Part shown: positions 1,791-5,579 of the stretch, one piece after another
Layout of the letters: each line of letters opens with the position of its first letter
Numbering within the stretch: the first letter of the stretch is position 1
Assembly (NCBI GenBank): GCA_014730235.1
Contig: WJIO01000352.1
Span: 1 to 6,873 of the forward strand
Direction of reading: 5' to 3'
DNA length: 6,873 nt
Origin: Candidatus Poribacteria bacterium
GTDB lineage: Bacteria; Poribacteria; DTPJ01; WJIO01
Made by a program: the position numbers and the translations under genes
The notes under the pieces: generated by a model
Told to the model about the DNA's origin: nothing
Seen by the model: only the letters and a program-made list of their open reading frames with translations
Database searches by the model: none

Positions 1791-1820
1791 GGTGATCGGT
1801 GATGCGTGATCCGTGATCGG
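1791..1820. repeat. Tandem heptamer repeat (four units)
   Basis: Four contiguous 7-base units of consensus SGTGATS are visible: GGTGATC (1791-1797), GGTGATG (1798-1804), CGTGATC (1805-1811) and CGTGATC (1812-1818), followed by GG. The array lies 21 bases after the recN stop codon in the noncoding spacer. Its function is unknown. It could be a simple slippage-prone repeat or part of a larger dispersed spacer repeat. Confidence 0.8.
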
Positions 1821-1824
1821 TAGA

Positions 1825-1864
1825 ATCCCCTTTAACTCCCCTAATTCCCCTTTGGAAAGGGGAG
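1825..1864. repeat. CCCCT-rich spacer repeat with palindrome
   Basis: Three CCCCT blocks (1827-1831, 1838-1842 and 1847-1851) are followed by AGGGGA. The third block and the G-run form a perfect 8-base inverted repeat, TCCCCTTT (1846-1853) and AAAGGGGA (1856-1863), with only GG between. The first block (ATCCCCTTT) could pair with the same G-run as an alternative. The hairpin has no following U-tract on the plus strand, so it is not a good intrinsic terminator. It resembles the short extragenic palindromes scattered in many bacterial genomes; that likeness is from memory and not tested. Confidence 0.6.
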
Positions 1865-2861: not shown

Positions 2862-4031
2862 ATGAAAAAGGTGATGATGGGTAACCATGCTGCTGCTTAT
2901 GGCGCGAAGCTGGCCAAAGCCGAGGTGGTAGCTGCATACCCCATAACCCCTCAAACCCAGACTGTTGAGAAAATATCCGAAATGGTGGCCAGCGGCGAGA
3001 TGCAGGCGGAATTTATCAAGGTGGAATCGGAACATTCGGCCATGGCGGCTTGTATAGGCGCATCGGCTGCAGGAGCAAGGGCTTTTACAGCTACATCCTC
3101 TCAGGGATTAGCCCTGATGCATGAATTGCTTCACTGGGCAGGAGGTGCAAGACTTCCTATTGTTATGACCAATGTAAACCGGGCAATGGCTCCCGGATGG
3201 AACATATGGAGCGAGCAGACCGACAGCCTGGCCCAGAGGGATACAGGCTGGATGCAGATATACTGCGAAAGCAACCAGGAGGTGCTGGATACTATTATAC
3301 AATCCTTCAAGGTTTCGGAAAAAGTGCTTTTGCCAACCATGATATGCCTGGATGGATTCTCTTTGTCCCATACCTATGAGATAGTTGATGTTCCGGATCA
3401 GCAATTAATTGACTCATATTTACCATCATTCGATCCTGAATACAAGCTGGATGTGGACAATCCCCAGACCTTCGGGGCTATGAATTCACCTGACTGGTAT
3501 TACGAGATGCGATACCAGATTCACCGGGCAATGGTTGAGGCGAAATCCCTGATAATAGAAGCAAACAAAGAGTTTGACGAAATTTTCGGCAGGAGTTATG
3601 GTCTTGTGGAAAATTACAGATGTGAAGATGCGGAAACTATTATAATCGCTTCGGGTACTATCGCCAGTACTGCAAAAGATGTTATAGACACCATGATACG
3701 TAATGGCACATCGGTTGGCCTGTTGAGAATAAGGTCGTTCCGACCCTTCCCGGAAGAGGAAATAAGGGAAATTGCAGGGAAAGCAAAGAACGTTGGTGTA
3801 ATTGACCGCAACATCTCCTTTGGTCATGAAGGTGTATTCTTTACCGAAACAAAAGCCTCGCTATATGATCTGCCAGAGCATCCCAAAGCTTTCGGATTCA
3901 TAGCAGGCCTGGGCGGTCGGGACGTTACACCCGAAGACATCGAAGACATGATCCGCATAACTGCCAGTGGAGATGCTGATGAGGTTACATGGTATAAGCT
4001 TAAGGATGCTGGTGTAGTTGTAACAAAATAA
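2862..4031 (+). CDS. porA: Pyruvate/2-oxoacid:ferredoxin oxidoreductase, alpha subunit
   Basis: This is the alpha subunit, which together with beta forms the thiamine pyrophosphate active site. The 389-residue protein shows the expected order. The N-terminal pyrimidine-binding domain has YPITPQT at 26-32, followed by KVESEHSAM at 53-61 and the FTATSSQGLALMHELL segment (75-90). The C-terminal transketolase-C-like domain starts around ENYRCEDAETIIIASGT. The length is normal for the separate-subunit (archaeal/Thermotoga-type) enzyme rather than the large fused PFOR. GGAAGGGA at 2843-2850 is a plausible ribosome binding site, 11 bases upstream of the start. It lies 31 bases after porD. The next por gene, porB, follows only after 666 bases that hold a broken HEPN gene, an unusual break in a normally tight operon. 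A related family (VOR, OOR-type) is possible; pyruvate is the most likely substrate. Confidence 0.95.
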   Translation: MKKVMMGNHAAAYGAKLAKAEVVAAYPITPQTQTVEKISEMVASGEMQAEFIKVESEHSAMAACIGASAAGARAFTATSSQGLALMHELLHWAGGARLPIVMTNVNRAMAPGWNIWSEQTDSLAQRDTGWMQIYCESNQEVLDTIIQSFKVSEKVLLPTMICLDGFSLSHTYEIVDVPDQQLIDSYLPSFDPEYKLDVDNPQTFGAMNSPDWYYEMRYQIHRAMVEAKSLIIEANKEFDEIFGRSYGLVENYRCEDAETIIIASGTIASTAKDVIDTMIRNGTSVGLLRIRSFRPFPEEEIREIAGKAKNVGVIDRNISFGHEGVFFTETKASLYDLPEHPKAFGFIAGLGGRDVTPEDIEDMIRITASGDADEVTWYKLKDAGVVVTK

Positions 4032-4282
4032 AGGAATGGAATGTTCAAGAAATAGATTATGGTGTATGGAAAATTGGGATAATATCAGAAGATCCCAAGA
4101 GAAAAGCAAATAGCCAAAGCATTTTATCTTGAGGCAAGAACCGATCTGACAATGGCAAAACTTCCTATGATAATGACATATATAGCCGATGCGTTTCAAT
4201 GAGTCAGCAGGTAGTCGGGAAAATACTAAAGGCTGCTTTGTCATTAGTAGGGATTATTGGCATTGGTCAACATGAAGTATTG

Positions 4283-4290
4283 AGATATTT
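4283..4290. repeat. Target site duplication, left copy
   Basis: AGATATTT immediately precedes the element and is repeated exactly after it. Inside the HEPN gene it reads as AGA TAT TT-, and joining it to the sequence after the right copy restores the frame. Confidence 0.9.
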
Positions 4291-4315
4291 GGCTCTTCCG
4301 GGTTCAGTGTAGTAA
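4291..4315 (+). repeat. Left terminal inverted repeat of the MITE
   Basis: This 25-base terminal repeat starts GGCTCTTCCGGGTTCAG. It pairs with 4386-4410 at 22 of 25 positions, including 15 consecutive matches. Confidence 0.88.
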
Positions 4316-4337
4316 AGATAAGAAACTTCTTTATGAT

Positions 4338-4363
4338 GTCATTCCTGCGAAAGCAGGAATGAC
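4338..4363. repeat. Perfect palindrome GTCATTCCTGC-GAAA-GCAGGAATGAC
   Basis: Arms of 11 bases (4338-4348 and 4353-4363) are perfectly complementary around a GAAA loop at 4349-4352. I recognise this palindrome as a frequently dispersed repeat in many unrelated bacterial genomes. Here it sits in the middle of the MITE, so it is either the core of that element or a repeat nested in it. As RNA it would form a stable GNRA-capped stem. No U-tract follows, so it is not an evident terminator. Confidence 0.85.
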
Positions 4364-4385
4364 AAGCTGAGAGCATTTTCAATTA

Positions 4386-4410
4386 TTACCATACTGAACC
4401 CGGAAGAACC
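4386..4410 (-). repeat. Right terminal inverted repeat of the MITE
   Basis: This is the inverted copy of 4291-4315, ending CTGAACCCGGAAGAACC. It has three mismatches to the left end, which suggests the element is not a very recent precise copy or that its ends differ naturally. Confidence 0.88.
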
Positions 4411-4418
4411 AGATATTT
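4411..4418. repeat. Target site duplication, right copy
   Basis: AGATATTT directly after the right end of the element is identical to 4283-4290. The HEPN frame continues from here as AGA TAT TTT ATT without a stop to 4662. Confidence 0.9.
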
Positions 4419-4697
4419 TATTAATGAATATAAAGAGATTATTACAAAAGAATTAATGAATAAGATAATAAAACTTGCTAGGTCTATTGAAATAGAGTGG
4501 ATAAAATCTCGCTATCCAGATTGGCCAGATACTAGTCAACCAGTATGGACAACATCAGAACAATATAATAAATCTGACGCTGAAAAAGTATTATCCGATA
4601 CTATAGAAGTTTATGACACAGTAATAGATGTAATGAAAAGCAAGCTGAATTTTAAAGAATAATATATTATTCATAATCAGGGAGTTACATAAGAAAA

Positions 4698-5579
4698 ATG
4701 AGACTAACACTACCAGAACAGGAGCTAATGAGTTCGGGTCATAAGGGATGCCAGGGGTGCGGTGGTGTTATGGCCATGCGGTATGCCCTCAAGGCTTTGG
4801 GGGAAGATACTATTGTTGTTATTCCGGCGTGCTGCTGGACGGTGCTGGAGGGTGAATTTCCCTATACATCGCTGCGAGTGCCTTTGCTGCATACGGCTTT
4901 TGAGACGGCGGCTTCGGCAAGTTCGGGAGTGCGTGCAGCTTTGCGTGTTAAGGGAAAAGATGATGTAAATGTCATGGCCTGGGCTGGCGACGGCGGCACT
5001 TTTGACATCGGTATGCAGGCCCTGTCAGGCGCTGTGGAGCGGAATGAGGACTTTATATATGTTTGTTACGATAACGAAGGTTACATGAATACAGGCATAC
5101 AGCGAAGTTCTTCCACACCCTACGGAGCATGGACTACCACAACGCCTGTAGACGCTTTTGAAAAAGCCCATAAGAAGAACATGGTTGACATAATGGTATC
5201 ACATGATATACCCTATGCAGCAACAGCTTCCATTGCATATCCCGAAGACCTGATCCGAAAACTTAATAAGGCCAAATCCATAGAAGGGGCAAAATTTATA
5301 CATATCCTCGCGCCGTGTCCTTCCGGGTGGCGTTGCGCTTCAAACCAGACGGTTAAGCTGGCCCGGTTGGCTGTGGAGACCAACGTATTTCCCCTTTATG
5401 AGGTGGAACATGGGAAATATACCATAAACCGAAAACCCAGGAAAAAACCGGCTAAAGAGTATCTATCACTACAAGGGCGTTTCAGGCATATCTCAGATGA
5501 GGTGGCGGCTGAGATACAGGAGCAGATAGATGCTGGCTGGGAAAAATTGCTGAAGAAAGAAAAGGACTCAATGGAATGA
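4698..5579 (+). CDS. porB: Pyruvate/2-oxoacid:ferredoxin oxidoreductase, beta subunit
   Basis: This is the beta subunit that binds thiamine pyrophosphate and one [4Fe-4S] cluster. The 293-residue protein has the N-terminal GHKGCQGCGG motif (C18, C21), a Cys pair C45-C46 in the position of the family's third ligand, and C207 in LAPCPSGWRC as the likely fourth. The thiamine diphosphate/Mg motif is clear: GDGGTFDIG beginning at residue 97, followed by the YDNEGYMNTG segment at 124-133. Length is normal for PorB. AGGGAG at 4679-4684 lies 13 bases before the ATG, a slightly long spacing. The gene should be in one operon with porGDA, but the broken HEPN gene and MITE separate it by 666 bases, so a separate promoter is possible. 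Its end overlaps the next gene by ATGA. Confidence 0.95.
   Translation: MRLTLPEQELMSSGHKGCQGCGGVMAMRYALKALGEDTIVVIPACCWTVLEGEFPYTSLRVPLLHTAFETAASASSGVRAALRVKGKDDVNVMAWAGDGGTFDIGMQALSGAVERNEDFIYVCYDNEGYMNTGIQRSSSTPYGAWTTTTPVDAFEKAHKKNMVDIMVSHDIPYAATASIAYPEDLIRKLNKAKSIEGAKFIHILAPCPSGWRCASNQTVKLARLAVETNVFPLYEVEHGKYTINRKPRKKPAKEYLSLQGRFRHISDEVAAEIQEQIDAGWEKLLKKEKDSME

What the first reader, a model, noticed from the sequence alone, without database searches (positions are those of the whole stretch)
4283..4418. 120-bp ISL3-like MITE with exact 8-base target duplication
Terminal repeats of 25 bases (22 matching) are bounded by AGATATTT on both sides. The duplication falls inside a reading frame that is restored when the element and one copy are removed. 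This gives three independent signs of transposition and fixes the boundaries to the base. The family assignment from GGCTCTTC ends and 8-base duplication is inferred.
Basis: partly seen in the sequence, partly recalled or inferred. Interest (0 to 1): 0.75.

Follow-up and report, generated by a model that had tools for sequence, protein, structure and literature searches.

The report
Abundant ISL3-like miniature transposon (MITE)
A 120-base piece of DNA without genes of its own, one of several hundred copies in this uncultured bacterium, has jumped into a small HEPN gene; this is a known kind of genomic parasite, with the unusual twist that the hairpin at its centre has been flipped and its two arms reshuffled among copies.

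Summary
Window 4291-4410 is a 120-bp element with 25-base terminal inverted repeats (22/25 matching) between two copies of AGATATTT. It is one copy of a large family: 427 termini (at most 1 mismatch) in its genome, 0 in the backwards-read control and 0 in 83 other genomes of the phylum. Among 109 paired elements with readable flanks, 44 have perfect 8-bp duplications (0.84 expected), and duplications of 7 or 9 bp hardly occur. Uninterrupted copies of the same target repeats exist. The ends and 8-bp duplication match complete ISL3 insertion sequences examined here. The assembly holds only three contig-edge ISL3 transposase fragments, none with the MITE's ends, so the partner transposase is inferred. 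The interrupted HEPN gene also carries an independent upstream frameshift. ISL3-driven MITEs with GGCTCTTC ends and 8-bp repeats are already published (Microcystis), so this is a new member of a known kind. New to me: elements are mosaics of different arms joined at a central 28-bp hairpin, whose loop lies in both orientations 1:1 with no relation to sequence kinship; a second MITE family with different ends shares that hairpin.

The parts
4283..4290 (+). left copy of the 8-bp target site duplication, AGATATTT
   Evidence: 8 bp is the family-wide length
4291..4315 (+). left terminal inverted repeat GGCTCTTCCGGGTTCAGTGTAGTAA
   Evidence: 22/25 match to the right end; 427 such termini in the genome
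4291..4336 (+). arm A (terminus plus AAGATAAGAAACTTCTTTATG), one of several interchangeable arm types
   Evidence: arm classification over 110 elements
4337..4364 (+). central perfect hairpin TGTCATTCCTGC-GAAA-GCAGGAATGACA (12-bp stem, 4-nt loop)
   Evidence: occurs in both loop orientations in other copies and outside this family
4365..4410 (-). arm B (read inward from the right terminus)
4386..4410 (-). right terminal inverted repeat GGTTCTTCCGGGTTCAGTATGGTAA
4411..4418 (+). right copy of the 8-bp target site duplication, AGATATTT
4169..4290 (+). left piece of the interrupted HEPN-domain gene in its local frame; the part before about 4166 is in another frame (separate frameshift)
   Evidence: HEPN PF05168 positions 21-49, E 0.0049, under the curated cut-off on its own
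4414..4662 (+). right piece of the interrupted HEPN-domain gene
   Evidence: HEPN PF05168 positions 63-114, E 0.00029, just under the curated cut-off on its own

Best explanation
A non-autonomous miniature transposon (MITE) of the ISL3 type. It carries two 25-bp terminal inverted repeats and no gene. A DDE transposase of the ISL3 family, made elsewhere, recognises the GGYTCTTCCGGGTTNAGTGTGG ends, moves the 120-bp unit and inserts it into A+T-rich target DNA (AAAWWTTT-like); repair of the staggered cut makes the 8-bp duplication. Shown: the ends, copy number, duplication length, target preference, and target repeats with and without the element. Inferred: that the transposase is ISL3, and the cut-and-repair steps. 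The copy in the window landed in a HEPN-domain gene lying between porA and porB of a 2-oxoacid:ferredoxin oxidoreductase operon; that gene also carries an independent frameshift. The 28-bp perfect hairpin in the middle is probably a hot spot for DNA rearrangement: template switching at the hairpin during replication, or recombination between hairpins, flips the loop and swaps arms between copies (inferred from the loop and arm statistics).
For: Copies: at least 40 scored near-full copies from 874 first-look candidates; termini 163 exact, 427 with up to 1 mismatch, control 0, none in 83 other phylum genomes. Density in an unselected 744-kb sample: 61 paired elements, 82 per Mb, about 450 per genome by extrapolation. 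Duplication: 44/109 perfect 8-mers against 0.84 in shuffled partners (maximum 5 in 1000 shuffles); 0 perfect at 9 bp and 7 at 7 bp; duplication bases are 90% A+T. Occupied and MITE-free versions of the same repeat, one duplication copy apart: L101:7231-7351 against L205, L113:14904-15022 against L212. ISL3 ends: the P. profundus ISL3 (closest plasmid match to this genome's own L031 fragment, 54%) has GGTTCATCCGG ends with duplication ctaatggt, and the L031 fragment itself ends GGTTCATCCGGTTAATGCG; Candidatus Manganitrophus ISL3 has GGMTCTTC ends with duplication attctttt; Leuconostoc ISL3 has an 8-bp duplication; an ISL3 in the same phylum has a GGCTCTTCCG end. IS1595 and IS6 transposases are absent from the genome; the single IS256 gene, broken by a stop, has no MITE-like ends. 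Loop: 25 to 23 in the two orientations, nearest neighbours agree 21.1/48 against 23.5 expected, whereas four of six ordinary variable columns do carry kinship signal (p 0.012 or less). Mosaic arms with intact duplications.
Against: No intact ISL3 transposase gene, and none with these exact ends, is in the 91.6%-complete draft assembly. About 40% of paired elements lack a 7/8 or better duplication, part of it because some copies seem to lie in larger composite repeats. Copies differ from the family consensus by about 6%, so the family may no longer be active. The loop-flip and arm-swap steps rest on one draft genome.
Confidence: 0.9

Rival explanations
1. The MITE is mobilised by a transposase of another family that also makes 8-bp duplications (IS1595, IS256, IS66, ISAs1 type), not ISL3.
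For: Other families also give 8-bp duplications (general knowledge), and no ISL3 gene with the exact MITE ends was found in the assembly.
Against: IS1595 is absent and the one IS256 gene has no matching ends. Complete ISL3 elements have GGYTCWTC(CGG) ends with 8-bp duplications. The genome does contain ISL3 fragments. IS66 and ISAs1 were not searched.
Confidence: 0.08
2. A structured regulatory or REP-like palindromic element (attenuator, terminator, RNA motif) rather than a transposon.
For: Very stable fold and a central hairpin that also occurs outside the family and, as a solitary repeat, in a genome of the same order.
Against: The family has sharp ends, 8-bp target duplications and MITE-free versions of the same sites. 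No Rfam family matches the window. The copy here lies inside a gene.
Confidence: 0.03
3. Loop flips and arm mosaics are assembly artefacts: the assembler mis-joined copies at the identical 28-bp hairpin.
For: One draft genome of 451 contigs; the three hybrids between the two MITE families (L106:3464, L109 minus strand 11370, L143:4151) show no obvious matching duplication.
Against: Mosaic elements (B/C, C/A, A or B with other arms) keep perfect or 7/8 duplications, so each looks like a real unit that moved after it was assembled; loops are still mixed (11 to 14) among A/B elements with intact duplications.
Confidence: 0.2

Closest known systems
187-nt ISL3-driven MITE of Microcystis aeruginosa PCC 7806 (PMC11448079)
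   Same: Terminal repeats begin GGCTCTTC, 8-nt direct repeats, stem-loop fold, attributed there to ISL3
   Different: Different sequence and length (187 against 120 nt); there some 1,215-bp ISL3 elements with matching ends are present in the genome, here no partner with matching ends is assembled; no arm mosaic was reported in the passages read
ISL3 insertion sequences (P. profundus plasmid ISL3, ISArsp7, Manganitrophus and Leuconostoc ISL3)
   Same: GGYTCWTC-type ends, 8-bp target duplication
   Different: They are 1.3-1.5 kb and encode the DDE transposase
Correia elements and dRS3 repeats of Neisseria (PMC3898611)
   Same: High-copy MITE-like elements of 100-155 bp; dRS3, ATTCCC(N8)GGGAAT, is close in form to the central hairpin ATTCCTGC(N4)GCAGGAAT and has been proposed to promote rearrangements
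   Different: Correia elements have a TA duplication and different ends; dRS3 is not described there as the centre of a MITE
Hairpin loop inversion by template switching (PMC8794818)
   Same: Inversion of a hairpin loop with the stem unchanged, seen in rRNA genes of bacteria and others
   Different: Here seen across a dispersed MITE family, at apparent equilibrium

Membership tests
MITE (non-autonomous DDE transposon) | Terminal inverted repeats bounding a short unit with no transposase gene | tested here: met
   120 bp, 22/25 ends; no ORF of 60 aa or more lies within the element
MITE (non-autonomous DDE transposon) | Target site duplication of constant length | tested here: met
   8 bp, 44/109 perfect against 0.84 by chance
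MITE (non-autonomous DDE transposon) | Many dispersed copies | tested here: met
MITE (non-autonomous DDE transposon) | Related empty sites | tested here: met
   MITE-free copies of the same target repeats; an orthologous empty site of the window copy could not be tested
ISL3-family mobilised | Ends of the GGYTCTTC type | tested here: met
   Compared with complete ISL3 elements and published ISL3 ends
ISL3-family mobilised | 8-bp target duplication | tested here: met
   ISL3 references
ISL3-family mobilised | An ISL3 transposase gene bounded by the same ends in the genome | tested here: inconclusive
   Three ISL3 transposase fragments, all at contig edges; the two right ends read are GGTTCATCCGGTTAATGCG and GGATTCATCCGGG, related to but not the same as the MITE ends
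ISL3-family mobilised | Transposition in trans by ISL3 transposase | not testable with these tools
   needs an experiment

The most novel reading that the evidence does not exclude
The central 28-bp hairpin is an exchange module: it repeatedly flips its loop and swaps whole arms between dispersed elements, even between two MITE families mobilised by different transposases (8-bp and 5-6-bp duplications), so that new mobile chimaeras arise and the chromosome is rearranged at these hairpins. Same-arm pairs (A/A, B/B), which would be near-perfect palindromes, are purged (0 seen of about 34 expected under random pairing).
Probability: 0.35. Interest if true: 0.55.

Novelty: new member of a known kind. 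Interest (0 to 1): 0.33.

Why it matters
It adds a very dense ISL3-type MITE family (about 80 complete elements per Mb in the sampled part) from an uncultured lineage with few sequenced relatives. It also gives a natural set of about fifty to a hundred related hairpins in which loop inversion and arm exchange can be measured, which bears on how MITE subfamilies arise and how short palindromes remodel bacterial chromosomes.

Tried and rejected
A pattern scan of 84,980 species genomes with the 17-base end gave 49 matches. The ends and best partner repeats were inspected; no MITE copy was recognised. The two Methylomirabilis hits resemble transposon ends (TGTGGG after the terminus), but the ORFs listed around them showed no evident transposase. 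Plasmid search with the element: none. A REP/RAYT origin of the hairpin was considered: the genome has a single Y1 transposase hit, so it is not favoured. IS6-like and IS1595 transposases: absent; IS256: one broken gene without MITE ends. Search for long (0.4-3 kb) terminus pairs as an autonomous parent in the first 354 kb: eight pairs, none with a convincing 8-bp duplication. Inspection of unpaired termini by eye found no end with an evident transposase interior. A homologue search with the right HEPN piece in the phylum found only one distant match. A first version of the loop-kinship control failed on a gapped alignment and was redone on elements of 112-126 bp.

Full report
Observation. Window 4291-4410 is 120 bases with terminal repeats GGCTCTTCCGGGTTCAGTGTAGTAA / GGTTCTTCCGGGTTCAGTATGGTAA (22 of 25 equal) between two AGATATTT. 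It folds into one long hairpin capped by a perfect 12-bp stem with loop GAAA (z -11.8).

Family. The genome (5.53 Mb, 451 contigs, 91.6% complete) gave 874 first-look candidates and at least 40 scored near-full copies, mostly at 90-95% identity. The terminus GGYTCTTCCGGGTTNAGTGTGGT occurs 86 times forward and 77 reverse exactly, and 220 and 207 times with up to one mismatch; the backwards control gives 0; the other 83 genomes of the phylum give 0. In an unselected 744 kb there were 61 paired elements (82 per Mb), from which I extrapolate about 450 in the genome. Relatives carry only the central hairpin, not the element.

Transposition. For 109 paired elements with readable flanks, the 8 bases on both sides are identical in 44 and match at 7 or more in 64. 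Pairing flanks at random gives 0.84 identical (maximum 5 in 1000). At 7 bases 7 are perfect, at 9 none. The first 354-kb sample, chosen from contigs rich in termini, gave the same picture. The duplicated octamers are about 90% A+T with an AAAWWTTT-like pattern. Some elements sit inside other repeats whose uninterrupted copies are present elsewhere in the genome, for example L101:7231-7351 against L205:13517 onward and L113:14904-15022 against L212, with the flanks meeting at one copy of the duplication. These are related empty sites. An orthologous empty site for the window copy could not be tested: no HEPN orthologue was found in the same order, only one distant match elsewhere in the phylum.

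ISL3 assignment. I read the ends of complete ISL3 elements. P. profundus plasmid: GGTTCATCCGGCTAAAGCGTACTT on both sides, duplication ctaatggt; Candidatus Manganitrophus: GGATCTTCTCC / GGCTCTTCTCC, duplication attctttt; Leuconostoc: GGCTCTA.. / GGTTCAA.., duplication taaatatg. An ISL3 in the same phylum ends GGCTCTTCCG. Published ISL3 elements begin GGCTCTTCG or GGCTCTTCGCG with 8-base duplications (PMC11448079, PMC6305408). The genome itself has three ISL3 transposase pieces, all cut by contig ends. The two right ends that can be read are GGTTCATCCGGTTAATGCG and GGATTCATCCGGGAAATGCC: the same style, but not the MITE's. So the family assignment is well supported by ends and duplication, while the actual partner is missing from the draft. 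IS1595 and IS6-type genes are absent and the single IS256 gene has no such ends.

The interrupted gene. The pieces before and after the element match consecutive parts of the HEPN profile (positions 21-49 and 63-114; each alone under the curated cut-off). The gene lies between porA (2862-4031) and porB (4698-5579) of a 2-oxoacid:ferredoxin oxidoreductase operon. A separate frame change near 4166 shows that the HEPN gene is broken in at least two ways.

Beyond the finding: mosaic arms and a flipping hairpin. Classifying each half from terminus to centre gives arm types A, B, C and rarer ones. Observed pairs: A/B 67, B/C 15, A/C 3, A/A 0, B/B 0; random pairing would give about 14 A/A and 20 B/B. 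Several unusual pairs keep 7/8 or 8/8 duplications, so they probably moved as units and are not assembly joins. The absence of A/A and B/B may reflect descent from one A/B ancestor or loss of near-perfect palindromes; I cannot separate these. The central loop is GAAA-like in 25 and TTTC-like in 23 of 49 A/B copies; nearest neighbours share orientation in 21.1 of 48 against 23.5 by permutation, while four of six ordinary variable columns do follow kinship (p 0.012 or less). Loop orientation therefore seems to change faster than the sequence diverges. Template switching at hairpins is a published mechanism for loop inversion, with bacterial rRNA examples (PMC8794818). A second MITE-like family (about 124 bp, ends GTAATCGTTAAAAA; 10 of 26 paired copies have a perfect 5-bp and 8 of 26 a perfect 6-bp repeat at the ends as I set them) carries the same hairpin, and three elements join a left half of that family to a right half of the ISL3-like family at the hairpin. 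I saw no obvious matching duplication around those three, so for them assembly error is not excluded.

Verdict. A real, ordinary kind of element, correctly read from raw sequence, in an unusually dense family. ISL3-driven MITEs are known. The hairpin behaviour is the part worth a follow-up.

Noticed in passing
L101:7104-7369, L198:13166-13290, L200:808-931 and others in the same genome: Second MITE-like family, about 124 bp, ends GTAATCGTTAAAAA...TTTTTAACGATTAC, 5-6-bp duplication, same central hairpin; 26 paired copies in 1.1 Mb.
   Followed up: partly
L106 near 3464, L109 minus strand near 11370, L143 near 4151: Hybrid elements: left half of the second family, hairpin, right half of the ISL3-like family.
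   Followed up: partly
central hairpin of the family, window 4337-4364: Loop orientation is about 1:1 among copies with no kinship signal, and longer nested loops (TTCAAGCTTTTTGAAAAAGCTTGAA) and double hairpins (CCAG..CTGG) also occur.
   Followed up: partly
L165:12806, L189:1104, L109:12549, L220:2647: A subset of elements is flanked by a shared larger context...AAAGTTT[element]AAAGTTTTCACG, as if carried inside a bigger repeat.
   Followed up: no
window about 4166: Independent frameshift in the HEPN gene upstream of the insertion.
   Followed up: partly
L180:10844-11005: An element with a perfect 8-bp duplication whose centre is a different palindrome, TTGTAGGGACACGGTATACCGTGTCCCTACAA.
   Followed up: no
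window 1791-1862: Short intergenic repeats (GGTGATCGGTGATGCGTGATCC and CCCTTTGGAAAGGGG) downstream of recN.
   Followed up: no
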